Source: Litorilinea aerophila
GTDB lineage: Bacteria > Chloroflexota > Anaerolineae > Caldilineales > Caldilineaceae
Direction: 5' to 3'
Assembly: GCA_945905745.1 (NCBI GenBank)
Contig: CAMDQF010000018.1
Coordinates: forward strand, 1 to 38,984
Length of the DNA: 38,984 nt
Under the pieces are notes generated by a model. It was given only the letters and a program-made list of their open reading frames with translations, made no database searches and was not told the DNA's origin. Position 1 is the stretch's first letter. Every line of letters begins with the position of its first letter. Shown here piece after piece: positions 1,541 through 32,824 of this stretch. The position numbers were made by a program, and so were the translations under genes.

Positions 1541-1623
1541 GGAGGAGATTAGGAGATTGGGAGATTGGGAGATTGCGTCGGGCATGCCAACAATCACCTA
1601 ATCTCTTAATCTCTATAATCTCC
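1541..1623. repeat. fold-back element of GGAGATTG octamers (element 1)
   Basis: The left arm (1541-1575) contains repeated GGAGATT/GGAGATTG units and the right arm (1591-1623) contains the complementary AATCTC/AATCTCC units, separated by about 15 bp. It lies between the T-box terminator and the trpE start, so it would be in the trpE mRNA just upstream of the ribosome binding site. It shares architecture but not sequence with the elements near 6418, 14697, 15340, 25349, 32238 and 32656. Confidence 0.75.
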
Positions 1624-1630
1624 AAATAAC

Positions 1631-1686
1631 AAAAAACCCTCGTCCAGCCAAACACAAAGCATATGCCTTGCGTTTGGGGACGAGGG
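1631..1686 (-). terminator. T-box regulated intrinsic terminator
   Basis: On the minus strand CCCTCGTCC (1686-1678) pairs with GGACGAGGG (1645-1637), with a further long internal stem in between, followed by a run of six T. It overlaps the region just after the T-box sequence, as expected for the terminator that competes with the antiterminator. Confidence 0.9.
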
Positions 1687-1774
1687 CTGCTTTCACAACT
1701 CCCGTGGTGCCACCCCGCTTAGACTGGGCTGATTGTGCACAAGGCGAATTTCTCAGAGCAACTCGCTTTGTGGC

Positions 1775-1804
1775 AACAAAAAACCCTTGCGTGAAACACA
1801 AGGG
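1775..1804 (-). terminator. additional terminator-like hairpin inside the T-box leader
   Basis: Read on the minus strand, CCCTTGTG (1804-1797) pairs with CGCAAGGG (1791-1784) around a 5-nt loop, followed by TTTTTTGTT. It lies between Stem I and the T-box core. Its tail shares GGGTTTTTTGTT with the main terminator downstream, which suggests a duplicated attenuator. It could instead be a Stem II/III variant that happens to precede a T run. Confidence 0.55.
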
Positions 1805-2041
1805 CCGTCCGCGCCAGTCTCACTCTACGAAGACGGGGCTTGCGGCCCGATCCTCTGCGCCCTGATAACGGTGGCGTCTCCGAGAAAAGCTACTAAGATG
1901 AAACTTGCTGTTCGCTTTTCCGACTCCCCGGCCCATTCACCACCTGCGCTACCGTCCCATTTCCACCATGCAGGGACTCTCTGGGGTTCGCTTTGATGAC
2001 TACTCTTCCAGTTCACAGTCATTTGTTATCGATTGCTTCCC

Positions 2042-2071
2042 ACTATACGTCAATAGAGGTTGGTTTGTCAA
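2042..2071 (-). promoter_or_regulatory. promoter for the trpE T-box leader
   Basis: On the minus strand TTGACA (2071-2066) and TATAGT (2047-2042) are separated by 18 bp, close to the housekeeping sigma consensus. The predicted start near 2035 places the whole T-box in the transcript. Confidence 0.8.
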
Positions 2072-2107
2072 GTGCGAATATTCATGTAAAAGTGAACGTT
2101 TTGCGAT

Positions 2108-2136
2108 TTGACAAAATAGGGAAATGTGTTTATAGT
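2108..2136 (+). promoter_or_regulatory. strong divergent promoter upstream of rpoB
   Basis: TTGACA (2108-2113) and TATAGT (2131-2136) are separated by exactly 17 bp. It fires away from the trpE leader promoter; the two -35 boxes are 36 bp apart. Transcription would start near 2143. Confidence 0.8.
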
Positions 2137-2142
2137 TGATTG

Positions 2143-2252
2143 TTACGAAGCGGCAATCGATTTGTCCGCCGCAGTTTGACAGATTGAATGAAGTAAACCC
2201 TGGAGTGGACAGTATTACCCAACCCGAATGTATTGAGGTGTTGGGTTTTTTC
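2143..2252 (+). ncRNA. candidate small RNA or attenuated rpoB leader, about 110 nt
   Basis: This stretch is bounded by a near-consensus promoter (2108-2136) and an intrinsic terminator (2217-2254). No ORF with a ribosome binding site was seen inside it, and it was not recognised as 6S, tmRNA, SRP RNA or a tRNA. It may be a free-standing small RNA or a leader in which some transcripts stop before rpoB. Confidence 0.5.
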
Positions 2253-2254
2253 TT
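2217..2254 (+). terminator. intrinsic terminator upstream of rpoB
   Basis: ACCCAAC (2217-2223) pairs with GTTGGGT (2240-2246), extended by CC/GG in the loop, and is followed by a T-rich tract TTTTTTCTTG. The T run exists only for plus-strand transcription. Confidence 0.75.
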
Positions 2255-2374
2255 GTTCCAGACACGGCGGGCAGCTGGTAGGAAGCTTCCAGATTTCGGA
2301 CGACGTAGGGAATATACTTTCAAAATTGTGCGGGCGAGAGAGATAGGTTGCTACGTCGAAGTTGATAGACAAGT

Positions 2375-2383
2375 TGCTATAAG
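2375..2383 (+). promoter_or_regulatory. possible extended -10 promoter for rpoB
   Basis: TGCTATAAG fits an extended -10 element. The hexamer 17 bp upstream is a poor -35. It lies downstream of the terminator at 2217-2254, so rpoB could be transcribed independently of the upstream promoter. A small hairpin CACCCG/CGGGTG at about 2509-2524 precedes the rpoB ribosome binding site. Nothing else was recognised in 2255-2543. Confidence 0.35.
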
Positions 2384-2543
2384 GCACTTCATGCGAATTT
2401 TCCACAGCAACGCTGCTTTAGTGGGTGGAAAGTTTGCAGAGTGCCCTATTGTGTTTTGAGCCAGAATCGTGCGGACTGACAACGGTTTTGGTGGCCTTGG
2501 CCGGGTACACCCGCCTTTCGGGTGAAAATGTGAAGGAGTGACT

Positions 2544-6416
<3,873 letters not shown>

Positions 6417-6417
6417 G

Positions 6418-6511
6418 ACTTGACAAGATGACAGGGTGAAGGGGTGACAAGGTGAAATAGCGGCAACGCACTTCACTTTGTCACCTGGACACCTTGTCGC
6501 CCGGTCATCTG
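6418..6511. repeat. fold-back element of TGACAAGG octamers between rpoB and rpoC (element 2)
   Basis: The left arm (6418-6457) is a run of about 8-bp units such as TGACAAGA, TGACAGGG and TGACAAGG. The right arm (6472-6511) carries the complements CACTTTGTCACC and ACACCTTGTCG. It starts one base after the rpoB stop codon and would form a long imperfect hairpin in an rpoBC transcript. Confidence 0.75.
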
Positions 6512-6526
6512 ATAGGAGAACCACGA

Positions 6527-11155
<4,629 letters not shown>

Positions 11156-11202
11156 GTACGAAGCGAAGTTAGCTTTGTACCCAAATGGATTGTAGAGAGA
11201 AA

Positions 11203-11237
11203 GGGTGGCATCCTGCTGGGATGCCACCCTTTTCTTT
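11203..11237 (+). terminator. intrinsic terminator of the rpoBC unit
   Basis: GGGTGGCATCC (11203-11213) pairs perfectly with GGATGCCACCC (11219-11229) around a short loop, followed by TTTTCTTTT. It lies about 50 nt after the rpoC stop. Confidence 0.9.
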
Positions 11238-11365
11238 TGGGTGTGTTCAAAATGAATTGGAGGAGAAGGCACACTGGGAGCAGTGCGGCCCACTCCTCTG
11301 TGCAACTGAAAATGAACACACCCTTTTCTTTTTCGCGAAACTCTGCCGCCATCGGTGCGATCTGT

Positions 11366-11394
11366 TTGGGTGGAGTTGTCACAAATGGTATAAT
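11366..11394 (+). promoter_or_regulatory. promoter of the coiled-coil/selB unit
   Basis: TTGGGT (11366-11371), a 17-bp spacer and a perfect TATAAT (11389-11394) preceded by TG (extended -10). Transcription would start near 11400, about 50 nt before the coiled-coil gene. Confidence 0.7.
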
Positions 11395-11448
11395 TTCCGG
11401 TGTTTGATTGGCAAAACCCTCGCAACAATTGGCGGAACAGGACCCGGT

Positions 11449-12759: not shown

Positions 12760-14697
12760 ATGCGCGTCATCGCCACCGCCGGCCACGTGGATCACGGCAA
12801 GTCCTCCCTCGTCCAGGCTCTCAGCGGTATCAACCCGGACCGTCTGGCCGAAGAAAAAGCGCGGGGTATGACGATTGATCTGGGCTTTGCCTGGATCGAA
12901 CTTTCCCTGCCCGGCCAGGAAACCCCCGAAACCATCGGCATTGTGGATGTCCCCGGCCACATCGACTTCATCAAAAATATGCTGGCTGGTGTGGGCAGTG
13001 TGGACGCGGCTGTGCTGGTGATCGCCGCCGACGAAGGCGTAATGCCCCAGACTCGTGAGCATCTGGCGATCCTCGATCTGTTGGCTGTGCCAACCGGTCT
13101 GGTAGCCTTGACCAAAGCTGATCTGATCGACGACCCGGAATGGCTGGAATTGGTGGAATTAGAAGTCCACGAACTGCTCGAAAAGACCTGCTTAGCCAAT
13201 GCGCCGATTGTACCTGTCAGCGCCCACACGGGCAAAGGGCTGGACAATCTGCGTGCCGCTCTCTCCGGTCTGCTCGGCGAATTGCCCCCCCGCCGGGACC
13301 GGGCACGCCCCCGTGTGCCCATTGACCGCATTTTCAGCATCTCTGGTTTTGGCACAATCGTCACCGGCACCCTCAGCGACGGCCATTTTGCTGTGGGCGA
13401 TCCGGTGGAGATTCTGCCCGACGGCCCCAGTGGACGCATTCGGGGCATCCAGAGCCACAACACCGCCATCCAACGGGCCGCGCCGGGCAGCCGGGCCGCC
13501 ATTAATCTGAGTGGTGTGGCGGTGGATGAGATTCAGCGGGGGCAGGTGGTGGTGAAGCCGGGCACGCTGCTTGCCACCAAACTGCTGGATGTCTCCTTTC
13601 GCCTCTTGCCCGACGCTTCCAAACCCCTTACCCACAATTTGCAGGTGGATTTCTTCAGCGGCGCATCCGAGACACCCGCGCATGTGCGGCTGTTGGGGGT
13701 GGATGAATTGCTCCCCGGTAAGGCGGGTTGGCTACAACTGCGTTTGGATCGCCCTGTGTTGGTGGCTGCGGGGGATCGCTACATTTTGCGCCAGCCATCC
13801 CCCAGTGTTACCCTGGGCGGCGGTGAAGTGCTGGACCCGCATCCCCGTCGCCGCTACCGCCGTATGGACCCGGCAGCCCTCGACCGGCTGGCTACGTTAG
13901 CCGCGGGCGCGCCGGACGAAATTTTGCTGCAAACCCTGGAACGTGCCCCTCTGCTCACTCTGTCAGACCTCATCGGCCAGAGCGGGTTGGGTACAGAGCC
14001 GGGAAAAGAGGCATTGGCTGCCCTGGAAGCGGCTGGGCTGATCACCCGGGTGGACAACGGACGGCTGCTCCTGGCCCGCTCCACCCACGCCAGTTTGCTC
14101 GACAACCTTGCCGATCTGCTCGCCGCCTATCACGCCGGCCATCCGCTGCGCCAGGGCATGGCCCGAGGTGAAGCGCGCAGCCGTCTGCGGGTGAAAGGTG
14201 GGGGGCGCCCTCTGGGCGGCACAGGGGCTGGAGAACTGCCTCTGCGCGCTTTCAACGATTGGGTAGAGCAGGCGGTGGCTGCTGGGCTAATTCAGGCCAA
14301 CGACGCGGTTCTCTGGCTGGCTGATCATCAGATTCGCCACAGCCCCCAACAATCCCAGGCAATGCGGCGTACATTGGACGCCTATGTCGCCGCCCCCTTT
14401 TCCCCGCCCAACGCAGGCGATACACTGGCGCTGTTGGGCAACGACGAGGAGCTGCTTGAGTCGTTGGTTGAGCAGAATCTTCTCTTGCGCATCTCTGGCG
14501 GCGTCTTTTTCCGTCCGGGTGATTTCGATACAGCCATCGAGCGTATCGCTGCCTTTGCCCGCGAGAATGGCTCCGTCACCCTCGCCCAGACCCGTGACCT
14601 CTTTGACACCAGCCGCAAATACGCCCAGGCCCTGTTGGAAGAGATGGACGCTCGGCGTATGACCCGGCGGGTGGGGGATGAGCGGGTTTTGAGATAG
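12760..14697 (+). CDS. selB: selenocysteine-specific translation elongation factor
   Basis: This 645-residue GTPase delivers selenocysteinyl-tRNA to the ribosome at UGA codons followed by a SECIS element. The N-terminus is a translational G domain: G1 GHVDHGKS (residues 8-15), the SelB-typical PDRLAEEKARGMTIDLGFAW, G3 DVPGH, G4 TKAD and G5 SAHTGKG. EF-Tu-like beta barrels follow, and the C-terminal third (from about residue 370) matches the winged-helix repeats that bind the SECIS hairpin. EF-Tu is excluded by the length and the GMTIDLGF segment. The ATG lies 9 nt after the upstream stop with no obvious ribosome binding site, which suggests translational coupling. selA, selC, selD and any selenoprotein were not seen in this window. 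Confidence 0.95.
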   Translation: MRVIATAGHVDHGKSSLVQALSGINPDRLAEEKARGMTIDLGFAWIELSLPGQETPETIGIVDVPGHIDFIKNMLAGVGSVDAAVLVIAADEGVMPQTREHLAILDLLAVPTGLVALTKADLIDDPEWLELVELEVHELLEKTCLANAPIVPVSAHTGKGLDNLRAALSGLLGELPPRRDRARPRVPIDRIFSISGFGTIVTGTLSDGHFAVGDPVEILPDGPSGRIRGIQSHNTAIQRAAPGSRAAINLSGVAVDEIQRGQVVVKPGTLLATKLLDVSFRLLPDASKPLTHNLQVDFFSGASETPAHVRLLGVDELLPGKAGWLQLRLDRPVLVAAGDRYILRQPSPSVTLGGGEVLDPHPRRRYRRMDPAALDRLATLAAGAPDEILLQTLERAPLLTLSDLIGQSGLGTEPGKEALAALEAAGLITRVDNGRLLLARSTHASLLDNLADLLAAYHAGHPLRQGMARGEARSRLRVKGGGRPLGGTGAGELPLRAFNDWVEQAVAAGLIQANDAVLWLADHQIRHSPQQSQAMRRTLDAYVAAPFSPPNAGDTLALLGNDEELLESLVEQNLLLRISGGVFFRPGDFDTAIERIAAFARENGSVTLAQTRDLFDTSRKYAQALLEEMDARRMTRRVGDERVLR

Positions 14698-14795
14698 GGG
14701 AGTGGGGAGTGGGGACTGGGGAGTGGGGACTGGGGATCGCCAATCACCCGGTCTCCCAATCACCCAATCACCCAGTCTCCGATCCCCAATCATCA
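14697..14795. repeat. fold-back element of GGGGAGT heptamers (element 3)
   Basis: Six consecutive heptamers (GGGGAGT or GGGGACT, last GGGGATC) run from 14697 to 14738, the first overlapping the G of the selB stop codon. The right arm (14741-14795) is built of CCAATCAC, CCCAGTCTCC and GATCCCC, partly complementary to the left arm. Confidence 0.75.
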
Positions 14796-15339: not shown

Positions 15340-15415
15340 CAGTGAACAGTAAACAGTGAACAGTAATCAGTGGAGCGCGCCGACGTTCACTGATTACTGC
15401 TCACTGCTCACTTTT
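15340..15415. repeat. fold-back element of CAGTGAA heptamers (element 4)
   Basis: Five heptamers CAGTGAA, CAGTAAA, CAGTGAA, CAGTAAT, CAGTGGA run from 15340 to 15374. The right arm (15386-15415) contains TCACTGATTACTGCTCACTG, complementary to the left arm, and ends in TTTT. The element begins 3 nt after the osmC stop and may act as its terminator. Confidence 0.8.
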
Positions 15416-18814: not shown

Positions 18815-18821
18815 AAATATG

Positions 18822-18842
18822 GCGTAGTGCGTATTGCGTAGG
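18822..18842. repeat. three GCGTANN heptamers (element 8, single arm)
   Basis: GCGTAGT, GCGTATT and GCGTAGG are consecutive, starting 8 nt after the phosphoesterase stop. No clear complementary arm was found. It resembles one arm of the other 7-8 bp satellite elements in the window. Confidence 0.5.
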
Positions 18843-22764: not shown

Positions 22765-22842
22765 TTCTGCAACACCACTGGCACAGTGGACGTGTGGTTG
22801 CCAGGTGTGGGATAGATCCAGCGAAAACCGACTTCTTTACAC

Positions 22843-22900: not shown

Positions 22901-22940
22901 TGTCTATTCCTTACGGTACACCAGGGAAATCACCGGGTTG

Positions 22941-23807
22941 ATGAGCGAAGCCGAAAGCCGAGAGATCAATCGCATAGCAGGCAGTTCGATCATTGATGTC
23001 CGTATGTGGTTCGATGAATCGCCCTGGCGGATTGCTGCCGGCTGGACTGTGCTGGCTGCGATGTTGGCGTCTGGCCTCTCTTTTGCCGATCTGCTGACCC
23101 AGGCATCTACGGTTGCCCTGCTCTTTGTATTGGCCGATCCGCTCTGGGGCAGCATCTGGGGGCTGATGTCCACACCGGAAAGCCTGCCTGCCATCCAGCG
23201 TTCCATGGCGCGTAGCCGGGTCTGGTTGCCCTATCTCCGCTCCGGATCGCCGGCGGCCCGCCTGTTTGGCATGGACGGGCCGAGCATTCTTGCGCTCATT
23301 TACAAAGTGGCTTTGCCCGCCATCTTTTTGGCGTTGGTCGTCTCATTCATTCTCGACCCCATAGCGTTTTGGCTGACCCTGTCGTTGATTGCCGTCAGCA
23401 CAGCGGGTTGGCTCCATCAGCAGATAGAATCGATTCCCGTCCGTCTCCTCTTTGTGTTGGCCGCAGTGGCCTTGCCCTGGCTGTTGGTGATCCTGGTTCT
23501 GGGCGTCGAAACCCAATGGACTGTTCAACTTCTGCTGGCGGGTCTGTGGGCTTTGCACGTATGGGGCAGCCAGAGCTACCAGAGCGACGATCCCAACGTG
23601 TGGGGGATCAGCGCTCTCGCCCTGGCCCAGGCCGGGATTGGGCTGCTGTTGATCCTTTTACAGCTACCTCTCTGGCTCGTCTTTTTGGCCCTCTTTTTTC
23701 TGCCCATCTGGCTGGCGATCTATCGGAGAGAATCTCTGGATCGGGTGCGCTTCTGGTGTGTCGCCGCGCTGCTCACCAGCGGTCTGGCAATTGGGCAGGT
23801 AGTTTAA
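22941..23807 (+). CDS. polytopic membrane protein of unknown function
   Basis: The 288-residue product starts with a soluble stretch of about 30 residues and then has roughly seven or eight hydrophobic segments, for example [59 protein letters not shown] and [20 protein letters not shown]. No transporter or enzyme motif is recognised. The ATG at 22941 was chosen over the adjacent TTG at 22938; the ribosome binding site is weak (CAGGGAAA). It is followed 7 nt after its stop by an HD-domain gene with a good ribosome binding site, so the two are likely co-expressed. The long structured leader is unusual for this window. Confidence 0.75.
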
Positions 23808-23814
23808 GGAGTCT

Positions 23815-24486
23815 ATGAACACAACAATTGTGGCTTTGGAACAGGTGCGCGCAGACCCGGAAGTGATCGCCTTTGTGCAGCAGGCTAACGAAGCTCTGCG
23901 CGGCCTGGGCTATACCGAACACGGCCAGCGCCATGCCGCGCTGGTGGCCCATGTGGCCGAAAACGTGCTGCTCCGGCTCGGCTATGAGGAACGCATGGGA
24001 CAATTGGCCCAGGTGGCTGGCTATCTCCACGACATCGGCAATTTGTTGCACCGGGAACACCACGCCCAGAGCAGCGCGCTGATGGCCTGGCCGATTCTGA
24101 AACGGCTGGGGATGCCTACGGAGGAGATCGCCCTGGTGATGAACGCCATCGGCAATCACGAGGAGGAACGGGGCACAGCGACCAACCCGGTCTCGGCAGC
24201 GGTGATCATCGCCGACAAAGCGGACGTGCATCGCAGCCGGGTGCAGAACCCAAACCCGGCCACCTTCGACATCCACGACCGGGTGAACTACGCGTCTACC
24301 CGCAGCTTTGTCCGGGTGGACCCGGCGGAACGGATCATTGCCCTGGAACTGGAGATCGACACCCAATTCGCCCAGGTCATCGAATACTTTGAAATTTTTC
24401 TGAGCCGGATGACAATGGTGCGCCAGGCGGCCAACTTTCTGGGCTGTGAATTCCGGCTGATGATCAACGAAGTCTATCTTTCCTGA
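23815..24486 (+). CDS. HD domain phosphohydrolase
   Basis: This 223-residue protein carries an HD metal-dependent phosphohydrolase domain: [15 protein letters not shown] with the first histidine, [12 protein letters not shown] with the HD pair (about residues 80-81), then a conserved HH and IGNHEEE. HD proteins hydrolyse nucleotides, cyclic nucleotides or other phosphates. The C-terminal region ([18 protein letters not shown] onward) is a short beta-rich extension without a recognised name. The ATG at 23815 has AAGGAG 5 nt upstream, 7 nt after the membrane protein stop. The substrate is unknown; a c-di-AMP phosphodiesterase would be of interest given cdaA downstream, but such enzymes of the PgpH type are membrane-bound and longer. 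Confidence 0.85.
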
Positions 24487-24545
24487 CCCGGCCAAGTCGG
24501 GATCAAATCTCTATCGAACCCAATAGCAAAGGAACGGAACGACCC

Positions 24546-25346
24546 ATGAAAATTGTGCGTTTCACAGCGGAAGGAAATGGCCGCAACGGCGACGCCACCT
24601 GGGGATTGCTTGTGGACCACTTCGTCTATCCCCTGCTTCGAGCGCCCTATGATAGCCCGCGGCTGGAAGGCGAATTCGCCCCAGAGGTTGCCGGATCGCC
24701 CATCCTGCTATCGGCGGTAAAGTTACTGGCTCCCTGCGAACCGCGCAAAATTATCTGCGTGGGACGCAACTACGCCGAACACGCGGCTGAATTCGGCAAC
24801 GAAGTGCCCGAAGAACCGGCCATCTTTCTGAAAGCGTCCACCAGCCTGATTGGCCCGGACGAACGGGTGATCCGTCCTTCGATCAGCGAGCGGGTGGATC
24901 ACGAAGGCGAGCTGGCCCTGGTGATCGGCAAGCGTTGCCGCTTCCTCAACGCCCAGGACGCCCACAATGTGATTGTGGGCTATACCCTTGCCAACGACGT
25001 GACGGCCAGGGATTTGCAGCGCAAGGATGTGCAGTGGACCCGTGGCAAAAATTTTGACACTTTTTGCCCGGTCGGTCCCTGGCTGGAGACAGATTTTGAC
25101 CCAGCCAACAAGGCAATTCGCTGCCTGGTCAACGGCGTAGTGAAGCAGCAGAGCAACACGGATCTGATGATCCATACGGTCGGCACGATCCTGGCCTATG
25201 TCTCCAACTTTATGACGCTGGAACCCGGCGATCTGGTCCTGACGGGCACACCCTCTGGTGTCAGCGCCGTGCAGCCGGGGGATGTGATGACTGTGGAGAT
25301 CGACGGGCTGGGGGTTTTGAACAATCCGGTAATCGCGGGTGTGTAA
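24546..25346 (+). CDS. fumarylacetoacetate hydrolase (FAA) family protein
   Basis: The 266-residue product is a FAA-family enzyme; relatives cleave or isomerise 2-oxo acids and enols (fumarylpyruvate hydrolase, acylpyruvase, oxaloacetate decarboxylase or tautomerase, 2-hydroxyhepta-2,4-dienedioate isomerase). The metal-binding acids are visible in [12 protein letters not shown] and the following [10 protein letters not shown]. The conserved [27 protein letters not shown] and [11 protein letters not shown] are present. An extra N-terminal segment of about 60 residues matches the short N-terminal domain of this subgroup. The ATG at 24546 follows AAAGGAACGGAACG. The true substrate cannot be assigned; no other aromatic-degradation genes are nearby. 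Confidence 0.88.
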
Positions 25347-25348
25347 CA

Positions 25349-25421
25349 CCAGTCAACGAATGAACCGATCAAACGGTCAACCAATTGATTGGTTCATTCG
25401 TTGACTGGTTCATTCGCCTTT
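25349..25421. repeat. fold-back element with an 18-bp perfect stem (element 5)
   Basis: CCAGTCAACGAATGAACC (25349-25366) is perfectly complementary to GGTTCATTCGTTGACTGG (25391-25408). The arms are made of roughly 8-bp related units (CAACGAAT, GAACCGAT, CAAACGGT, CAACCAAT). It begins 3 nt after the FAA-family stop. No long T run follows. Confidence 0.85.
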
Positions 25422-25446
25422 TTCGACAATTCGGGAGATATTTCCT

Positions 25447-26379
25447 GTGACAATACCAGCACTGAACCATTTTCTCGATCTGGCCGATCTCTCCAGCGAC
25501 CAATTTTGGGGATTGATGCGCCTGGCAAAACGGCTAAAGGACGAACGCGCCGAGAAAGGCGCAAACGCGCCGATCCTGGCCAACAAATCCCTGGCCCTGC
25601 TCTTTCAGAAGCCCTCCCTGCGCACCCGTGTCAGTTTTGAAATGGGGATGCAGCACTTGGGCGGCTACGCCTTCTATCTCAGTCCCGCCGAGGTGGGGCT
25701 GGGCACACGGGAGAGCGCGGCCGATGTGGCCCGGGTTCTCAGCGGCTATGTGGACGGTATTATGGCCCGGGTCTTCGGCCATCAGGATGTGGTAGACCTG
25801 GCGAACTGGGGCAGTGTGCCCGTCATCAACGGTCTGAGTGACTTCAGCCACCCCTGCCAGGCCCTCACTGATATCTTCACCGCCTGGGAAGTACTGGGTG
25901 ATCTGGAAGATCGCACGATTGCCTATGTGGGGGATGGTGCGAATAATGTGGCAACCAGCCTGATGATGGCCGCGGGCAAAGTGGGGATGAATGTGCGTAT
26001 TGTCTCTCCCGTTGGCTATATGCCCGACGCTGGGGTGGTGGCGCGCAGCGGGGCCGAAGTCAGCGTGACCAACGATTTGGACGGCGTGCAAGGCGCGGAT
26101 ATCCTCTATACCGATGTCTGGACCAGTATGGGCCAGGAGTCGGAACGGGAACAGCGGCTGGCCGTCTTCCCACCCTACCAGGTCAGCAGCGGGTTGCTGG
26201 CGCGCACAGGCAACCCCCAGGCGCTGGTAATGCACTGTCTGCCCGCCCACCGGGGCGAAGAGATTACCGACGAAGTGGCCGATGGCCCAGCCAGCATCCT
26301 CTTCCCCCAGGCCCACAACCGCCTGCACGCGCAAAAGGCGATCCTGGCACATCTGCTGGGTGGCGTTCCGCTGGAATAG
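25447..26379 (+). CDS. argF: ornithine carbamoyltransferase
   Basis: This 310-residue enzyme joins carbamoyl phosphate and ornithine to give citrulline in arginine synthesis. The carbamoyl-phosphate loop reads [11 protein letters not shown], a common variant of STRTR. Other motifs are [17 protein letters not shown], the ornithine-binding DVWTSMGQE (in place of DVWxSMG) and [17 protein letters not shown]. Length and motif order are standard; aspartate carbamoyltransferase is excluded by HCLPAHRG. It starts at GTG 25447 with GGGAG about 9 nt upstream. No other arginine gene is in the window; cdaA begins 19 nt after the stop and may be co-transcribed. Confidence 0.95.
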
Positions 26380-26398
26380 GCGGACCGCAAGCAAATGG

Positions 26399-27226
26399 AT
26401 GTCTATGTCAGATACTCTTTCGATCCTTAGCCGCTTGACCGACTGGCAAAATATGCTGGATGTCGGTCTGGTTACGCTCGTTTTCTTCTTCCTTCTGCGC
26501 CTCTTTCGGGGAACCCAGGCTGTGCAGTTGTTGCGCGGCCTGCTGGTGATCGGTCTGGTCATTCTTGTCATCACCCGGACGGTCGAGCTGACGGCCTTCA
26601 GTTGGCTGCTCAGCAGCAGTTCCATTGCCATTTTTGTGGCCATTCCCGTCATCTTTCAGCCAGAATTGCGTCGCGCCCTGGAACGGGTGGGACGGGGGCT
26701 GCCCTTTCTCACCCGGCGGGCGGACGGCGCCGCCACCCAGGAAGTGGTCAGTGTGATTGTGCGCACCTGCACCCAACTGGCCGACAACCGTCACGGCGCG
26801 CTGATTATTCTGGAAGGGGCCACCGGTCTGGGTGAGTATATTGACCGGGGTGTTCCTGTGGACGGCGAAGTGACAGCCGAGATGCTGTTGACGATATTTT
26901 TTCCCAACACAGCATTGCACGACGGCGCTGTGATCGTGCGCGGCAGCCGGATTGCAGCGGCCGGTTGTGTCTTGCCCCTCACCTCTCGCGACAGTCTCGA
27001 TTCACAGTTGGGTACGCGGCATCGGGCGGCGATTGGTGTTACAGAACAGTCCGACGCGCTGTCGATTGTGGTTTCGGAAGAGACGGGCGCTATATCCGTA
27101 GCCCGCAATGGCCGGATTGTGCGCCGCCTGGACGATAACCGTCTGCGGCGTATTCTGACCGACTTTTTCGATCCCCGCAGCCAACCGGATGTGGAAACTG
27201 TGGAGTCTCTCACCCATGCGGAATAG
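26399..27226 (+). CDS. cdaA: diadenylate cyclase
   Basis: This 275-residue membrane enzyme makes the second messenger c-di-AMP from two ATP. Three N-terminal hydrophobic helices (about residues 20-85) precede the DisA_N cyclase domain. The catalytic motifs are DGA (D175-G176-A177 in TALHDGAVIVRG) and the RHR motif (R207-H208-R209 in GTRHRAAIG). The start could be ATG 26399 or ATG 26405; neither has a strong ribosome binding site, and the 19-nt gap from argF suggests coupling. The gene overlaps cdaR by 11 nt. c-di-AMP usually controls potassium and osmolyte balance and cell-wall metabolism in Gram-positive-type bacteria. Confidence 0.93.
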   Translation: MSMSDTLSILSRLTDWQNMLDVGLVTLVFFFLLRLFRGTQAVQLLRGLLVIGLVILVITRTVELTAFSWLLSSSSIAIFVAIPVIFQPELRRALERVGRGLPFLTRRADGAATQEVVSVIVRTCTQLADNRHGALIILEGATGLGEYIDRGVPVDGEVTAEMLLTIFFPNTALHDGAVIVRGSRIAAAGCVLPLTSRDSLDSQLGTRHRAAIGVTEQSDALSIVVSEETGAISVARNGRIVRRLDDNRLRRILTDFFDPRSQPDVETVESLTHAE

Positions 27227-28526
27227 CCGCCCGACCAGTCGTGATCAGATCCGGGAGACCCTCGTCACTCTCTTGATGTCCGTAGCTCTGGCTCTGGTTG
27301 TCTGGGTCTTTGCCATAGACCAGGAGAATCCGCTGATTCGGGAAGATTTTCCTACCCCGATTCCGATCAGCGTGCGGGGGCTGGCCCCTAACCTGCAGAC
27401 TCTGCAGGACCTGACCCAGCGCTCAGTCTCCCTGGATGTGCGCACATCCAAACGTACCTGGGACAGTCTGACAGCCGACGATTTTAGCGCTGTGATCGAT
27501 CTGAGCGATCGGGGACCGGGCAGCCACGATCTGGATGTGATTGTCAGCGTGGTCAACCCGGACATCGAGATTATGGCCCAAGAGCCTCGCCAACTGCGGG
27601 TGCAGATCGAGAGTCTGATCACAAAGACTGTGCCGATTGTGGTGGAGATTATTGACTCGGCGGCCATTGGCTACGATTGGCAGACGGCGATTGTGGAGCC
27701 GGAGGTAGCCGAGATTTATGGGCCGGAAGTGCTGGTCAATCAGATCCAGGCTGTCTATGCCGATGTACTGCTGATGGGGACCAAAACCCAGGTCGAACGT
27801 ATCCCATCCCTGTTGCCCCGTAACGGTCAGGGTCAGACTGTGGAACGGGTGCAGGTGGAGCCGACGACGGCCAAGGTCGTTGTGCCTGTGGTCCAGCGGC
27901 CAGGCCGCAAGGAAGTCGCTGTCCTTGTCCAGGTCGAAGGTCAACCGGCGGCCAGCTACCGCATAACCAGTGTCAAGCCCGAACCCTCCACTGTTATCTT
28001 GTTGGGTAGCGCAGAGGCTCTGCGCAATGCGCCGGGTTTCGTCGAAACTGCGCCCCTCTCCATCGACGGAGCCACCAGCGATGTGCGGGAGCGGCTGCCC
28101 CTGAACCTGCCGGAGAATGTCTCTGTGCTGGAGGAGGCAGGCGTCTTTGTCACAGTGGGCATTTCGCCCATCGAAAGCAGCGCTACCGTCAGCCGCAGCC
28201 CGGTGGTCATCGGCCTGAGCGAAGTTCTGACGGCGACAGTCTCCCTTTCCCGTGTGGATATCCTTGTCAGCGGTCCCCTGCCCCGCTTGGACGCTCTGGG
28301 CGCGTCGGATGTGCGGGTGACGCTGGACCTGACCGGCCTTGCGCCAGGCAGCCATGTGGTTATGCCGGTTGTGGTTCCCCCGGAAGGCGTGCGGGTGGAA
28401 GGGGTGATCCCCCAAGCCATTGAGGTTGTGATCGAAGCGCTTTCTCCGCCCGCCGAGCCAACACCAGTGGCCCCGTCTGACAGTAGCGCTGGGGAAGCAC
28501 CGCCTGCCCCCACACCATCCAACTGA
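27216..28526 (+). CDS. cdaR: YbbR-domain protein, CdaA regulator
   Basis: The 436-residue product has one N-terminal membrane anchor (about residues 16-38, TLVTLLMSVALALVVWVFAI) and then a long extracytoplasmic part made of about four YbbR beta domains, ending in a proline-rich tail (PPAEPTPVAPSD). In other bacteria CdaR binds CdaA and adjusts c-di-AMP synthesis. The ATG at 27216 lies inside the end of cdaA in another frame (11-nt overlap). In many Firmicutes glmM follows; here der follows after 200 bp with its own possible promoter. Confidence 0.88.
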   Translation: MRNSRPTSRDQIRETLVTLLMSVALALVVWVFAIDQENPLIREDFPTPIPISVRGLAPNLQTLQDLTQRSVSLDVRTSKRTWDSLTADDFSAVIDLSDRGPGSHDLDVIVSVVNPDIEIMAQEPRQLRVQIESLITKTVPIVVEIIDSAAIGYDWQTAIVEPEVAEIYGPEVLVNQIQAVYADVLLMGTKTQVERIPSLLPRNGQGQTVERVQVEPTTAKVVVPVVQRPGRKEVAVLVQVEGQPAASYRITSVKPEPSTVILLGSAEALRNAPGFVETAPLSIDGATSDVRERLPLNLPENVSVLEEAGVFVTVGISPIESSATVSRSPVVIGLSEVLTATVSLSRVDILVSGPLPRLDALGASDVRVTLDLTGLAPGSHVVMPVVVPPEGVRVEGVIPQAIEVVIEALSPPAEPTPVAPSDSSAGEAPPAPTPSN

Positions 28527-28618
28527 CTTTCGCAGGGTTTGGGCAGGGAGGCGATGACATGCCGTCGCGCCAACCATCGCGTCCACCCGACTCCCTACTT
28601 CGTGCCTGTCGCGTGTTG

Positions 28619-28627
28619 TGGTATGAT
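28619..28627 (+). promoter_or_regulatory. possible extended -10 promoter of der
   Basis: TGG precedes TATGAT (28622-28627), an extended -10; the -35 is weak. It lies about 100 nt before the der start. No terminator for cdaR was seen in 28527-28618. Confidence 0.4.
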
Positions 28628-28726
28628 TCCTTTTTTGCGGACTGAGCCGCAGGCCGCTGGGCCGCCAAATGCAATGGACGAACTGACCCCCCGGTCCAGT
28701 TCTTGGGAATCAATGGACCGCTTCTG

Positions 28727-30103
28727 ATGAAAAAACGTAAACCTGTAATCGCTCTGGTTGGCCGCCCCAATGTGGGCAAATCTACTCTCTTCAATCGGCT
28801 GGTCGGCTCGCGTATGGCCATTGTCGAAGACCTGCCGGGGACCACCCGGGACCGGCTCTATGGTGAATCTGATTGGAATGGGCGAGATTTTGTGGTGATC
28901 GATACGGGCGGTTTGGAAGCCCAGTCCACCGCGGATGCCCGGGCTTTGCGACCTGGCGCAACCGCTTTGGCCGAGGATTCGGCCCATTTTGTGGTCGAAA
29001 TCAGAAATCAGGCCCAGCTCGCCATCGACGAAGCCGATGTAATCGTCTTTGTGGTGGATGGCCGCGACGGGTTGACAGCTGCTGACGAGGAATTGTCGAT
29101 CTTTTTGCGCCAGACCCCCAAACCCCTGGTGCTGACGGTGAATAAAGCCGAAAGCCCGGAACGTCAGCTAAACGCAGCGGAATTTTGGGCCTTGGGCATC
29201 GGCGAACCCATTCCCGTCAGTGCCTATCATGGCACGGGGGTGGGCGATCTTCTCGATATTCTGGTCGGTCTCTTCCCCGATGCTCCCCCCCAGGATGAGG
29301 AAGAAGTAGAGCCACTGGGTATCGCACTGATCGGGCGGCCCAATGTGGGCAAGAGCAGCCTGCTCAACGCACTGATCGGTTCCGAACGCTCGATTGTCAG
29401 TGAGATCGCAGGGACCACCCGTGACCCGATTGATACGGATATTGTCTACGAGGGGCGGGCTATCACACTGATCGACACCGCGGGCATTCGTCGCCGGGGC
29501 AAAGTGGAGCAGGGGATCGAGCAATACAGCGTACTGCGCAGCATGCGCAGTATCGACCGGGCCGATGTAGCCCTGCTGTTGGTGGACGCGGATGAGGGCG
29601 TCACTGCCCAGGACACCCATGTGGCAGGCCATATACTGGAGCGCAACAAAGGGATTGTGGTCATCGTCAACAAATGGGATACGGTTGACAAAGACACCAA
29701 TACGATGGTGGAGTATACCCGGAAGGTACGGGAAGAGTTGAAGTTTATGGACTACGTGCCTGTACTTTTTATCAGCGCGCTGACAAAGCAGCGGGTGAAT
29801 AAAGTGTTGCCCACCGCGCTGATCGTAGCTGACGAGCGGGAATATCGCTTCTCAACAGGTGAACTGAACCGGGTGGTGCAGGAAGCCTATGACAAGACGC
29901 CCCCGCCCAACCGCAATGGACGGCCGCTGCGTATCTACTACGCCATTCAGTCCAGCGTCAAACCGCCCACCTTCATCCTTTTTTGCAACGATCCAGAGTT
30001 GGCCCACTTCAGCTATATTCGCTATCTGGAAAACCAGTTCCGCGAACATCACCCCTTTGTGGGCACGCCCATCCGCATCTTTTTGCGCCCGCGCACCCAA
30101 TAA
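28727..30103 (+). CDS. der: ribosome-assembly GTPase Der (EngA)
   Basis: This 458-residue protein has two tandem GTPase domains and a C-terminal KH-like domain, the layout unique to Der, which is needed for 50S subunit maturation. Domain 1 shows GRPNVGKST, DLPGTTRD, DTGG and NKAE; domain 2 shows GRPNVGKSS, EIAGTTRDPIDTD, DTAGIRRRGKV and NKWD. The stretch between DTGG and IRNQAQ in domain 1 is about 18 residues longer than in B. subtilis Der and is alanine-rich. The start is ATG 28727; no strong ribosome binding site is seen immediately upstream. A 15-bp perfect terminator follows the stop. Confidence 0.96.
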   Translation: MKKRKPVIALVGRPNVGKSTLFNRLVGSRMAIVEDLPGTTRDRLYGESDWNGRDFVVIDTGGLEAQSTADARALRPGATALAEDSAHFVVEIRNQAQLAIDEADVIVFVVDGRDGLTAADEELSIFLRQTPKPLVLTVNKAESPERQLNAAEFWALGIGEPIPVSAYHGTGVGDLLDILVGLFPDAPPQDEEEVEPLGIALIGRPNVGKSSLLNALIGSERSIVSEIAGTTRDPIDTDIVYEGRAITLIDTAGIRRRGKVEQGIEQYSVLRSMRSIDRADVALLLVDADEGVTAQDTHVAGHILERNKGIVVIVNKWDTVDKDTNTMVEYTRKVREELKFMDYVPVLFISALTKQRVNKVLPTALIVADEREYRFSTGELNRVVQEAYDKTPPPNRNGRPLRIYYAIQSSVKPPTFILFCNDPELAHFSYIRYLENQFREHHPFVGTPIRIFLRPRTQ

Positions 30104-30110
30104 CCCGCAC

Positions 30111-30150
30111 AGGAGTTCGACTCTTCAGAAAGAGTCGAACTCCTTTATTT
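30111..30150 (+). terminator. intrinsic terminator after der
   Basis: AGGAGTTCGACTCTT (30111-30125) is perfectly complementary to 30130-30144, with a 4-nt loop, followed by TTATTT. The stem is 15 bp without mismatch. Confidence 0.9.
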
Positions 30151-30185
30151 CAAGAACTTCGTTTCCCGAGTGTTGAGGAGAGGCG

Positions 30186-31142
30186 ATGGAATCGATCTTC
30201 CGCTCCATACGTGCCTATACAATCGAAATCTCGCTGATGCTGGCCCTGCTGGCCTCTCTGGGCTTCTTTGGTTATCTGGGCTACGGCCTCGTCCAACCCG
30301 CGCCCGACACCGTAACTTTTTCCGGCGAAGAAGCCCTGGCCCACGTCCAGACCCAATTGGACTTTGGAACCCGCATCACCGGTTCGCCTGAACACAAGGC
30401 GATGGGCGATTGGGTGATTCGGACGTTGAGCGAGCAGGGCTGGGAGGTCTTTGTCCAACCCTTCGAGCCTGTACCCAATGTGGACGCCCGCAACATTCTG
30501 GCGGTCAGCGGCAGCGGACCGGCCATTATTATCGGCGCCCACTACGACAGCCGCATCTTTGCCGACGCGGACCCAGACCCTGCGAAGCGTTCACTGCCAG
30601 TGCCGGGGGCTAATGACGGCGCATCGGGTGTGGCTGTTCTGATGGAACTGGCCCGCAGTCTGAATATACCGGCGTCGGGCAAGACGGTCTGTCTGGTCTT
30701 CTTTGATGCAGAAGATAATGGCAGGATTCCAGGCTGGGACTGGATTCTGGGTAGCCGCTTCTTCGTCTCGCGCATCAGCGCCCTGCCCAAATGCAGCGAA
30801 CCAGAATTCACAGTGATTGTGGATATGATCGGCGATGCGGATCAGCAGGTCTACCGGGAGCGCAACAGCACCGGCTATCTGGTGGATGCTATCTGGGCCA
30901 CGGCTGCGGAGATTGGCTATGGCGAATGGATTGTCAACGAACCCCGCCACGCCATGATCGATGATCACACCCCATTTCTCGAGGCCGGGATTCCCGCACT
31001 GGATATGATCGATTTTGACTATCCCTACTGGCACACAGTGGACGATACTTTTGATAAAGTGAGCGCAGAAAGTCTGGCCCGGATTGGTCGTACACTGGAA
31101 GTCTGGATCGAGCGGGGCGCGCCCTATACCCAGGGCAATTGA
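30186..31142 (+). CDS. membrane-anchored M28 family protein, glutaminyl-cyclase-like
   Basis: The 318-residue protein has a single N-terminal membrane segment (about residues 15-38) and an extracytoplasmic zinc-hydrolase domain of the M28 family. Metal-site segments are GAHYDSR, PGANDGASGVAVLMEL, FFDAEDNG, VDMIGD and YPYWHTVDDTFD. The run DDHTPFLEAGIPALDMIDF before the last histidine resembles glutaminyl-peptide cyclotransferases more than classical aminopeptidases, so it may form N-terminal pyroglutamate on exported peptides; an aminopeptidase role is the alternative. The ATG at 30186 has GGAGAGG just upstream. The gene lies between the der terminator and lgt. Confidence 0.85.
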   Translation: MESIFRSIRAYTIEISLMLALLASLGFFGYLGYGLVQPAPDTVTFSGEEALAHVQTQLDFGTRITGSPEHKAMGDWVIRTLSEQGWEVFVQPFEPVPNVDARNILAVSGSGPAIIIGAHYDSRIFADADPDPAKRSLPVPGANDGASGVAVLMELARSLNIPASGKTVCLVFFDAEDNGRIPGWDWILGSRFFVSRISALPKCSEPEFTVIVDMIGDADQQVYRERNSTGYLVDAIWATAAEIGYGEWIVNEPRHAMIDDHTPFLEAGIPALDMIDFDYPYWHTVDDTFDKVSAESLARIGRTLEVWIERGAPYTQGN

Positions 31143-31155
31143 ATCGTCACTGGCT

Positions 31156-31184
31156 TTGTAATCTCTTCTCTTTCGTTCTATACT
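31156..31184 (+). promoter_or_regulatory. promoter of lgt
   Basis: TTGTAA (31156-31161), 17-bp spacer, TATACT (31179-31184). The leader to the ATG at 31297 is about 105 nt. Confidence 0.65.
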
Positions 31185-31296
31185 TCTTTGACCGTACCGT
31201 CGAAAACAACCGAATCACTTTCTCGGTTGCGTTCCACTGAATTTTCAATACATTGGCTTTTTTGCTCTCATTTTCACACCACAGGAGTACTTCCTA

Positions 31297-32214
31297 ATGG
31301 ATCCTGTCATCTTTCGCATTGGGCCGTTTGCCCTGCAATGGTATGGCCTCTTTATTGTGGGCGGATCGGTCGTTGCGGCCTGGCTGGCGTCCCGCTACGC
31401 CGAAAAGGACGGGGAAAATCCGGATCATGTCTGGAATCTCCTGGCTTGGACCCTGGTCATAGGTATTATCGGAGCGCGGCTCTACCACGTCTTCAGCTCC
31501 CCCGCCGATGCCCAGGGCTGGTCGTTCTACAAAGAAAACCCGATTGAGATTATCAATTTCTGGAACGGGGGCTTTCGGGGGCTGGGTATCTACGGCGGTC
31601 TGGTCGGCGGTGTGCTTGCCATCATCATCTACACATGGCGCAACAAACTGAAATTTCTGCACTATATGGACTACATCGGCCCCAATGTGCTGATTGCCCA
31701 GGCCATCGGGCGTATGGGCAACTTTGTCAACCAGGAACTCTATGGCCCGGCAACGGATGTGGCTTGGGCCTTTCATATCAACCCGACCCATCCCTGCCAA
31801 CGTCCACCCAATACACCCGTAGACATCGGCTATTGTGGCGCGGGTAATCTCTCCCAGGCCAGCGTGGACTGGTACGCCAACAACGGTTTCCACCCCACCT
31901 TCTTTTACGAGGCAAGCTGGAATATCCTGATGTTTGTGGTTCTCTACCTCGTCATCCGCCATTTCGGCCACAAGCTGCGCGAGGGCGACGGCGCTCTGCT
32001 CTACTTCATCGCCTATCCATTGGGTCGGTTGTGGGTAGAAGCCTTCCGTCCCGACGCCTGGGTGATGGGAACCCTGGCTACGGCCCAATGGATTGCAATT
32101 TTCAGTATTGTGGTGAGCGTTGCCCTGCTGATTATCCGCCATCGCAACTGGCCGGGCAAAAAAGCCCCGAACGATTCCCTGCGGAATTTGAGCAAATACG
32201 CAGCGAAGGCGTAG
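31297..32214 (+). CDS. lgt: prolipoprotein diacylglyceryl transferase
   Basis: This 305-residue integral membrane enzyme transfers diacylglycerol from phosphatidylglycerol to the lipobox cysteine of prolipoproteins. The protein begins MDPVIFRIGPFALQWYGLFI, typical of Lgt, and carries the family signature in AIGRMGNFVNQELYGPATD. About seven membrane segments are visible. An insertion rich in polar residues (about 165-195, PTHPCQRPPNTPVDIGYCGA) is longer than in E. coli Lgt but is seen in other Gram-positive-type forms. The ATG at 31297 has AGGAG 9 nt upstream. A predicted substrate, the lipoprotein at 37360-38649, lies in the same window. Confidence 0.95.
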   Translation: MDPVIFRIGPFALQWYGLFIVGGSVVAAWLASRYAEKDGENPDHVWNLLAWTLVIGIIGARLYHVFSSPADAQGWSFYKENPIEIINFWNGGFRGLGIYGGLVGGVLAIIIYTWRNKLKFLHYMDYIGPNVLIAQAIGRMGNFVNQELYGPATDVAWAFHINPTHPCQRPPNTPVDIGYCGAGNLSQASVDWYANNGFHPTFFYEASWNILMFVVLYLVIRHFGHKLREGDGALLYFIAYPLGRLWVEAFRPDAWVMGTLATAQWIAIFSIVVSVALLIIRHRNWPGKKAPNDSLRNLSKYAAKA

Positions 32215-32237
32215 GGAAAGAACTGAACAGGAAACGT

Positions 32238-32288
32238 GAAATGAGAAACGTGAGATCAGGTGACGATCTCACGTTTCTCATTTCTTTA
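32238..32288. terminator. 20-bp perfect hairpin after lgt, likely terminator (element 6)
   Basis: The 20 bases at 32238-32257 are perfectly complementary to 32265-32284, with a 7-nt loop, followed by TTTA. GAAACGTGA occurs twice in the left part (32231-32239 and 32245-32253), the same duplicated-unit pattern as the other fold-back elements. It lies between lgt and the opposing DUF503 gene and could stop transcription from both sides. Confidence 0.8.
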
Positions 32289-32334
32289 TACCTGGAGATG
32301 ACAAAGCAAATGCCGGCCAGACTCCCAGCCCGAC

Positions 32335-32622
32335 CTACTCGATCATTTCGATATTGTAGTCGATCATCTGGGCATCCATGCGCCAGCTTTCCACCCGGTT
32401 GGCCACGTTCTGCAGCAGCCGGTGGGCCAGCGCCCGGTTGCCGCTGACACAGACCACTTCCACCACAGCCCGGCTCAATTGGTCCTGGGCGTCGGCCTCG
32501 CAGATGGAGATGTTGTATTCCTTGCGCAGCCGGGCGATCAGCGGGCGGATCACACTGCGCTTCTCCTTCAGGCTGTTGGTGATGGGCAGATAAAGTTCGA
32601 TTGTGAGGAGTCCGATTGCCAT
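32335..32622 (-). CDS. DUF503 family protein (YlxP-like)
   Basis: The 95-residue product matches the DUF503 family, whose YlxP member is often encoded near translation and ribosome-maturation genes in Gram-positive bacteria. Visible features are the N-terminal strand [20 protein letters not shown], the conserved [19 protein letters not shown] and the closing [19 protein letters not shown]. The fold is a small alpha-beta sandwich with no catalytic motif. It starts at ATG 32622; no ribosome binding site is seen. The biochemical role is unknown. It lies downstream of the lipM-like gene on the same strand, separated by a large satellite element. Confidence 0.88.
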
Positions 32623-32624
32623 GG

Positions 32625-32824
32625 GGTTAGGTGATTGGGTGATTGGGTTTTGAAGGTGAACAGTGAACGGTGAACAGTGAACAGTGAACGGTGAACAGTG
32701 GAGCCTGTACCCGACGATCTGCGCTACAGAGCCAGAAATGGATGGGTCGAATTCCCACTGGTTACTGGTTACTGGTTACTGGTTACTGGTTACTGGTTAC
32801 TGGTCACTGCTTACTGTTCACTCG
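32625..32824. repeat. heptamer satellite fold-back, six plus six units (element 7)
   Basis: The left array (32656-32697) is six consecutive heptamers of the form GTGAACA or GTGAACG. The right array (32761-32802) is six exact copies of GTTACTG, followed by the variants GTCACTG and CTTACTG up to about 32816. The arms are partly complementary (TTACTGTTCACT in the right arm with AGTGAACAGT-type sequence in the left). A shorter array of GGTGATTG units lies at 32627-32647. The element ends 2 nt from the stop of the lipM-like gene on the minus strand. Confidence 0.85.

What the first reader, a model, noticed from the sequence alone, without database searches (positions are those of the whole stretch)
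1541..32824. Fold-back satellites of 7-8 bp units, each locus with its own unit, placed right after stop codons
At least seven intergenic sites share one architecture with no shared sequence: a left arm of tandem 7-8 bp units and a right arm of roughly complementary units. Positions and units: 1541 (GGAGATTG), 6418 (TGACAAGG), 14697 (GGGGAGT), 15340 (CAGTGAA), 25349 (CAACGAAT-like), 32238 (GAAACGTGA-containing) and 32656 (GTGAACA/GTTACTG), with a single-arm case at 18822. Except for 1541, each begins or ends within about 25 bp of a stop codon (1, 0, 3, 3, 24, 2 and 8 bp). Only 32238 and perhaps 15340 end in a usable T run. This is not a REP family, since the units differ. It suggests a mechanism (slippage plus quasi-palindrome template switching) that repeatedly builds hairpins at gene ends, perhaps as terminators or mRNA 3' stabilisers.
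Basis: seen in the sequence. Interest (0 to 1): 0.78.

Follow-up and report, generated by a model that had tools for sequence, protein, structure and literature searches.

The report
Repeat-stemmed hairpins behind stop codons
The short repeat hairpins sitting right behind stop codons look like gene-less copies of a widespread small genetic element whose longer form carries a gene for a four-helix-bundle protein, which offers a testable origin for puzzling seven-base repeats seen in many bacteria.

Summary
The fold-back 7-8-bp arrays are real and crowd stop codons, but "each locus has its own unit" is wrong: in 1.24 Mb of this genome, 169 period-7 intergenic arrays use 47 units (about 158 expected). 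In a congener, of 12 orthologous gaps with arrays in both species, 8 hold other units. Few look like terminators: 5 of 82 stems have a T run.

The key link: genes for TIGR02436/PF05635 four-helix-bundle proteins (the S23/IVP protein of 23S rRNA intervening sequences, related to Avd of diversity-generating retroelements) lie in the loop of the same kind of hairpin. Of 78 usable loci from many phyla, 54 have 6-9-mer arrays on both sides (distal control 1 of 65). Of 39 such elements facing a gene, 30 lie within 25 bp of its stop. Proteins at least 70% identical share the unit in 25 of 29 pairs. Rhizobiales carry long and short hairpins with one unit.

Best reading: the window's hairpins are short, non-autonomous members of an IVP-linked fold-back element class found at gene ends and repeatedly replaced. 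Mobility is inferred, not shown. I found no report of the link in the library searched.

The parts
1545..1622 (.). Fold-back octamer hairpin (GGAGATTG / CAATCTCC) between the trpE T-box leader and trpE start; a GGGTATT heptamer hairpin at the same place in congener G001
6421..6512 (+). Octamer hairpin (TGACAAGG) between rpoB stop (6416) and rpoC start (6527); 9 of 29 relatives read have a period 7-8 array of other units plus a stem there, and G006 a diverged form of the G001 hairpin
14697..14792 (+). Heptamer hairpin (GGGGAGT / CCAATCAC) fused to the selB stop codon; GGATATT hairpin in G001
15340..15415 (+). Heptamer hairpin (CAGTGAA / TCACTGC) 2 bases after the OsmC-like gene; other unit in G001
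18818..18840 (+). Single short array of the GCGTATT family after the metallophosphatase gene; GATTGGG-type hairpin in G001
25348..25409 (+). Octamer-type hairpin (AACCAATC family by eye) after the FAA-hydrolase-family gene; empty site in G001, related hairpins in G003 and G005
32238..32284 (.). 20-bp perfect hairpin of the dispersed GAAACGTGAGATC family between convergent lgt and DUF503 genes; same family at this site in G001-G004; terminator-like hairpin in G005
32656..32821 (-). Heptamer arrays GTGAACA and ACTGGTT around a 56-bp loop, behind the lipoate-ligase-like gene; same family, different copy number in G001; empty in G002
32630..32648 (-). Short GGTGATTG array next to the previous element

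Best explanation
The hairpins are short, protein-less members of a class of fold-back elements whose stems are 7-8-bp arrays and whose long members carry, in the loop, a gene for a four-helix-bundle protein (TIGR02436 / PF05635, IVP). Shown here: the architecture of long and short forms, their shared position at gene ends, coupling of unit and protein lineage, coexistence of both forms with one unit in Rhizobiales, and presence, absence or replacement of hairpins at orthologous sites.
For: PF05635 loci have period 6-9 arrays on both sides in 20 of 32 class loci against 16 of 189 control genes of the array-rich own genome (33 of 38 fetched loci given, 32 usable) and in 54 of 78 usable cross-phylum loci against 1 of 65 distal window pairs. 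Arms complementary in 67 of 77 against 6 of 77 swapped. Of 52 long elements with arrays on both sides, 39 face a main reading frame and 30 of these lie within 25 bp of its stop, against 3.4% for shifted edges. Unit shared in 25 of 29 protein pairs at 70% identity or more, 45 of 311 at 55-70%, 100 of 2037 at 45-55%. In Rhizobiales one unit, TAGGCAR, forms short hairpins and IVP-carrying elements; 11 of 20 stretches read have an array edge within 25 bp of the facing main frame's stop. In the own genome, of 4907 ORFs the two best flanked by complementary arrays are an IVP (GGGGACT arms, as in solo arrays) and a GxxExxY ORF. The IVP locus of G014 (L206) has TGACAAGA/GGAGACAA arrays upstream (none found downstream), like the rpoB-rpoC hairpin. 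Present in G001, absent in G000: an IVP element (PF05635 at G001 C54 117505-117771) between genes that adjoin in G000. Solo hairpins in tandem gaps and IVP stems show the same A.C over G.U bias.
Against: The largest own-genome families (GCGTATT; also GAAACGT) were not seen with an IVP. Loops are nearly all unique in the own genome (2 sharing pairs among 37 loops; one more pair, L030 15231 and L050 16896, by eye), so whole-element copying is hardly visible there. Close protein pairs include orthologues and congeners (for example L171/L205, L180-L182), so plain descent explains part of the unit coupling. No target-site duplication or junction rule was established. GxxExxY genes also sit in arrays, 8 of 29, so IVP is not the only passenger. 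The A.C bias is absent or reversed in convergent gaps (8 elements G.U against 2 A.C, p 0.11). Nothing shows that IVP acts on DNA or RNA.
Confidence: 0.62

Rival explanations
1. The arrays arise by another route, such as slippage, and IVP genes are passengers that insert into loops of hairpins already there, as 23S rRNA intervening sequences replace tetraloops.
For: IVSs sit on helix tips in place of tetraloops (PMC4990558 passages); GxxExxY genes also sit in arrays; several own-genome families have no IVP seen.
Against: Unit and IVP lineage are coupled (25 of 29 close pairs), and long elements lie at stop codons themselves.
Confidence: 0.22
2. Local slippage plus quasi-palindrome template switching builds each hairpin at gene ends without any protein-coding element.
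For: Whole-heptamer length changes at 32656; the slippage argument of Mrazek et al. as cited in PMC4679880.
Against: 47 units among 169 arrays; no significant mirrored unit order; IVP association.
Confidence: 0.1
3. The hairpins are functional gene-end signals (terminators or mRNA 3' stabilisers) kept by selection while their sequence turns over.
For: Slots are conserved although units change, e.g. rpoB-rpoC; the GAAACGT hairpin at lgt is kept in G001-G004 and replaced by a terminator-like hairpin in G005.
Against: T run after 5 of 82 tandem stems on the sense strand, 4 on the antisense; in tandem gaps A.C exceeds G.U on the sense strand (47 against 23 elements, p 0.0056; convergent gaps lean the other way, 2 against 8); one sits inside rpoBC; sites are empty in some relatives.
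Confidence: 0.12

Closest known systems
Intervening sequences (IVS) of 23S rRNA with S23/IVP protein
   Same: Stem-loop bounded by complementary sequences with a PF05635-type ORF in the loop; mobility suspected, mechanism unknown (PMC4990558 passages). Closest solved structure 2gsc, XCC0516.
   Different: Here the stems are 7-8-bp arrays, the sites are gene ends, and most copies lack the ORF. IVSs in rRNA of these genomes were not sought.
Cyanobacterial / Xanthomonas G-rich heptamers GGGGA(C/T)T and GGGNATC
   Same: Same unit as one family here; intergenic, within 50 bp of stops on the sense strand, scarce between divergent genes (PMC4692102 abstract and sections 11, 13, 16).
   Different: That work studies one unit type as a quadruplex former, finds few inverted pairs in Nostoc, and says repeats are generally not tied to mobile elements; no IVP link in the parts read.
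P6b stem-loop of the Nostoc trnL intron
   Same: Stem of heptamer repeats replaced as a whole by another repeat class at one site (PMC4476775 passages).
   Different: One locus inside a group I intron; here many sites at gene ends.
TAACTGA repeats of Beggiatoaceae, Cyanobacteria and Bacteroidetes
   Same: Heptamer arrays scattered over distant phyla; the unit is the same, read on the other strand and rotated, as CAGTTAT found here (2 arrays; PMC4679880 abstract, sections 3 and 10).
   Different: Mostly direct repeats ahead of start codons in the main genome studied, proposed as regulator sites.
REP palindromes with RAYT transposases (recalled; abstract start of PMC3733652 seen in the listing)
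   Same: Many short palindromes and a matching protein gene.
   Different: REP sequence tags and RAYT genes were not searched for here; the partner protein here is a four-helix bundle.
Avd of diversity-generating retroelements
   Same: IVP is related (L178 scores 42.5 bits on the Avd model, under its cut-off of 80; PMC10053308 passages).
   Different: No reverse transcriptase was noted within the IVP elements read; the own genome has two separate Avd+RT loci.

Membership tests
IVP-linked fold-back element (as defined here) | Fold-back stem of 7-8-bp arrays | tested here: met
   6 of the 8 listed sites carry TRF arrays of period 7 or 8; 25349 and 32238 fold back without one; 18822 has one arm
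IVP-linked fold-back element (as defined here) | Edge close to a stop codon | tested here: met
   Enriched in the genome sample; site 1541 is an exception
IVP-linked fold-back element (as defined here) | Unit also found around an IVP gene | tested here: inconclusive
   Met for the GGGGACT and CAGT families and TGACAAGA upstream of the G014 IVP; not seen for GCGTATT and GAAACGT
23S rRNA intervening sequence | Lies in 23S rRNA | tested here: not met
   Window sites lie between protein genes or in the trpE leader; at gathering threshold Rfam finds only a T-box in the window
23S rRNA intervening sequence | S23/IVP ORF in the loop | tested here: not met
   Window hairpins have loops of 56 bp or less; met only by the long forms elsewhere
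23S rRNA intervening sequence | Excised by RNase III | not testable with these tools
   needs RNA
Intrinsic terminator | U run after the stem on the sense strand | tested here: not met
   5 of 82 tandem stems, no excess over antisense; 32238 may be an exception
G-rich heptamer repeats of Nostoc/Xanthomonas | Unit GGGGA(C/T)T in tandem near stop codons | tested here: met
   For the family of site 14697 only
REP/RAYT | REP sequence tag and RAYT gene | not tested
   no search made
MITE of an insertion sequence | Target-site duplication and a parent transposase | not tested
   Empty sites read by eye gave no clear duplication; not analysed systematically; no transposase search made

The most novel reading that the evidence does not exclude
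Four-helix-bundle IVP proteins define a large class, not linked before, of hairpin mobile elements in many phyla: each protein lineage reads its own 7-8-bp unit, copies hairpins made of that unit to the bases right behind stop codons (perhaps as RNA, borrowing a reverse transcriptase as its relative Avd does), and rival lineages overwrite each other's hairpins. This would explain bacterial heptamer repeats, 23S rRNA intervening sequences and the replacement of the Nostoc P6b stem by one mechanism.
Probability: 0.3. Interest if true: 0.93.

Novelty: new variant of a known kind. Interest (0 to 1): 0.78.

Why it matters
Heptamer repeats of cyanobacteria, Xanthomonas and Beggiatoaceae, the IVSs of 23S rRNA, and the abundant 'four helix bundle protein' are three separate loose ends. 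A statistical link between them across many phyla gives each a testable partner: a protein for the repeats, a substrate for the protein, and a wider element class for the IVSs. It also warns that gene-end hairpins next to stops should not be annotated as terminators without data.

Tried and rejected
Sense-strand RNA hairpin selection: it predicts G.U over A.C; in tandem gaps the reverse was seen, so dropped as a general account (convergent gaps, n 12, lean the other way). Purine-first polarity (35 against 2 two-arm elements; 57 against 8 IVP stems) looked like orientation to transcription, but a two-arm hairpin keeps that polarity on both strands, so it says nothing about transcription. Mirrored unit order: not significant, although several relatives look mirrored by eye. 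Shared loops in the own genome: almost none. A first count of long elements at stop codons (40 of 52) took any open frame of 300 bases; units such as TAGGCAR hold stop codons and end any frame (the like count for 20 Rhizobiales stretches gave 19), so I replaced it by the stricter count (30 of 39 facing a main frame; 13 more face none; in 15 of the 30 the stop lies at or inside the array). A viral-contig scan with a GCGTATT pattern gave one locus, not followed. Literature searches (8 of 10) found no paper tying IVP genes to such arrays in the held open-access library; one search was swamped by an abbreviation. A survey of array density against IVP count over more relatives was not possible.

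Rows dropped: three rows judged spurious (2, 9, 33) before the counts; 5 of 38 fetched PF05635 loci (L176, L177 under cut-off; L198, L200, L202 with stops inside) and L229 of 30 PF13366 loci, which itself dropped L185 as too short; one search dropped 2 of 80 loci as too short and had 65 with both distal windows; one search used 77 of 80, 27 of the 33 class loci were entered (L173-L175, L185, L194, L199 left out) with the 80 cross-phylum loci, 97 usable; searches left out 5 loci with short left flanks and those without arrays on both sides. One search keeps the best 80 of 568 confirmed loci, itself a capped list.
Full report
What is there. The window is contig 18 of a 6.43-Mb draft genome in 436 contigs; the sampled DNA is 59% GC. 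Genes named by Pfam here: selB, an OsmC-like gene, a glycerate-kinase-type (MOFRL) gene, enolase, a metallophosphatase, an FAA-hydrolase-family gene, lgt, DUF503 and a lipoate-ligase-like gene; trpE, rpoB and rpoC are named from their sequence (recalled; the T-box supports trpE). TRF and inverted-repeat searches confirm fold-back arrays at the listed sites, with the limits given in the observation check. I called genes with a simple Markov ORF caller (931 genes in 61 pieces; it misses some small genes) on the window plus 60 stretches of 20 kb, 19% of the genome. There are 625 merged arrays of all periods; period 7 is the commonest (233), and 231 arrays of period 6-9 lie between called genes.

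Units are families. The 169 intergenic period-7 arrays use 47 canonical units; random units of the same composition give 158 on average and at least 148 in 200 trials. Families seen include GCGTATT, GGGGATT, GGGGACT, CAGTNNN variants, GGCAGGT, GAAACGT, GAATNNN variants, and octamers such as GATTGGTT and GAGATTGG. The private-unit picture came from looking at one contig.

Position and form. 175 elements were scored. Stop-facing distances of 10 bp or less (overlaps included) make up 43% of 171, against 20% for random placement; elements per kb are 1.08 in tandem, 0.81 in convergent and 0.57 in divergent gaps; in 113 tandem elements positions are skewed to the stop (KS p 1.4e-8). Beside G-rich arrays TAG is the stop in 22 of 26 cases, against 358 of 900 genes overall: array and stop codon are often fused. 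Arrays of the same families also occur inside long reading frames.

Turnover. In G001 (RpoB 97% identical) each of the five window sites compared first (trpE leader, rpoB-rpoC, selB, OsmC-like and metallophosphatase gene ends) holds a hairpin of another unit between conserved flanks, while a terminator-like hairpin behind rpoC is largely conserved in sequence. At the FAA-hydrolase-gene site G001 is empty; at lgt the family is conserved; behind the lipoate-ligase-like gene the unit family is conserved but copy number differs. Over 74 orthologous neighbour pairs in the overlap of my samples, 27 showed arrays in one or both; three rows were dropped as spurious. Of the rest, 12 have arrays in both species: 4 same unit, 8 different; 12 have a TRF array in one only. 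Not all of the one-only rows are true absence: L050 16914 and L062 3908 keep weaker relatives by eye. At rpoB-rpoC (30 loci read, own included), 9 of 29 relatives have a period 7-8 array together with a stem score of 32 or more (G001, G003, G005, G010, G016, G017, G018, G020, G025); G006 has a hairpin without a TRF array that resembles that of G001; five have spacers of 11-44 bp; the other 14 have spacers of 76-166 bp without such a hairpin, one with a stem but no array (G011).

Mostly not terminators. T runs (5 or more of 8) follow 5 of 82 tandem stems on the sense strand and 4 on the antisense. In 80 tandem elements imperfect stem pairs on the sense strand are A.C more than G.U (503 against 353; 47 against 23 elements, p 0.0056). 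In 12 convergent elements it is the reverse (38 against 58; 2 against 8, p 0.11), in 8 divergent ones there is no difference by element (4 against 3). The test treats elements as independent, which shared units weaken. The GAAACGT hairpin at lgt is a possible exception with a T-rich end.

The protein. Two insertions seen in the pair comparison carried ORFs between inverted arrays. Of 4907 ORFs of 180-900 bases in the sample, 9 are flanked by arrays with complementary flanks; the best two (tied) are a PF05635 protein and a PF13366 (GxxExxY type) protein; the first is TIGR02436. PF05635 matches: 9 in the own genome, 7 over the cut-off; 45 of 61 genomes of the class set (44 over the cut-off); 0 of 14 control genomes. 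Around PF05635 genes arrays occur on both sides in 20 of 32 loci and on at least one side in 29, against 16 and 74 of 189 control genes. Around GxxExxY genes: 8 and 21 of 29, with units of another kind (CGCAGAGA, CACGGAGG, TCTTTGCG), like the solo CGCAGAGG arrays.

Across phyla. The one genome-contig scan returned 80 loci, the best of 568 confirmed, itself a capped list. Record titles name, among others, Capnocytophaga, Chryseobacterium, Rhizobium, Bosea, Thiodictyon, Phycisphaerae, Acidobacteriales, Nostoc, Nodularia, Chloroflexus, Desulfobacteraceae, Treponema, a Parcubacteria and a Clostridia bacterium; their spread over phyla is partly recalled. 54 of 78 usable loci have arrays on both sides, 74 on at least one; distal windows of the same loci 1 and 18 of 65. 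Complementary arms: 67 of 77 against 6 of 77 swapped. Of 52 elements with arrays on both sides, 39 face a main reading frame, and 30 of these have an edge within 25 bp of its stop, 15 with the stop ahead of the array and 15 with it at or inside the array edge; shifted edges 3.4% (which replaces the looser count). Unit identity follows protein identity: 25 of 29 pairs at 70% or more, 45 of 311 at 55-70%, 100 of 2037 at 45-55%, 58 of 1659 at 35-45%, 32 of 576 below; same-sense unit matches 262 of 4656 pairs against 83 for opposite sense. Close pairs include orthologues. The A.C over G.U bias appears again, now relative to the IVP gene (335 against 229; 34 against 17 elements, p 0.024).

Long and short forms together. 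Of 20 stretches read, L335 (the locus also fetched as L306) and L349 are long forms, 430-450 bp between arrays; L335 shows the IVP ORF, L349 its beginning. The others are short hairpins or single arrays; L345 and L346 share one loop at two loci, 200 kb apart on one contig. By main frames, 11 of 20 have an edge within 25 bp of a facing stop.

Literature seen. PMC4679880: outline with abstract, sections 3 and 10. PMC4692102: outline with abstract, sections 11, 13, 16: the stop-codon preference on the sense strand is already published for GGGGA(C/T)T and GGGNATC repeats. PMC4476775: passages: heptamer stems replaced wholesale in the Nostoc trnL intron, origin unknown. PMC4990558, PMC10053308, PMC10910872, PMC5041132: passages. 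No paper found ties IVP genes to such arrays, judged from the listings and the parts read.

Verdict. What is best supported is an element class with IVP-coding and IVP-less hairpins at gene ends; how it moves is open.

Noticed in passing
window 1673-2025 (-): T-box leader ahead of trpE (Rfam 97.2 bits), with the 1541 hairpin between it and the trpE start.
   Followed up: yes
L176 444-1842 and L177 1453-2894 (own genome C216, C40): Two loci with a reverse transcriptase next to an Avd protein (97.8 and 104 bits, cut-off 80): likely diversity-generating retroelements in the same genome; template and variable repeats not sought.
   Followed up: partly
L042 9408-9800; L207-L236: GxxExxY (PDDEXK_3) genes flanked by 8-9-mer arrays of a different unit class than IVP genes.
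   Followed up: partly
L035 15033-17193, L036, L038, L024 and others: Arrays of the same families lie inside long called frames, sometimes several per gene, as if inserted without breaking the frame.
   Followed up: no
window 32238-32284; query 532-585: A roughly 54-bp GAAACGTGAGATC hairpin family has dozens of listed matches in congeners, most in G002 (capped list).
   Followed up: partly
own genome GCGTATT family (e.g. L014 8981-9131, L029 13341-13493): Arrays some 100-130 bp apart with an extra inner inverted repeat near GGTAGTGACGATTGAGGC and a mostly unique centre: MITE-like layout.
   Followed up: partly
window 11200-11232 and 30111-30144: Perfect hairpins behind rpoC and the GTPase-like gene; the first is followed by a T run and largely conserved in G001: ordinary terminators by look.
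   Followed up: partly
L345 and L346: Two hairpins of one Rhizobium genome carry nearly the same loop sequence at two distant loci, a sign of copying.
   Followed up: partly
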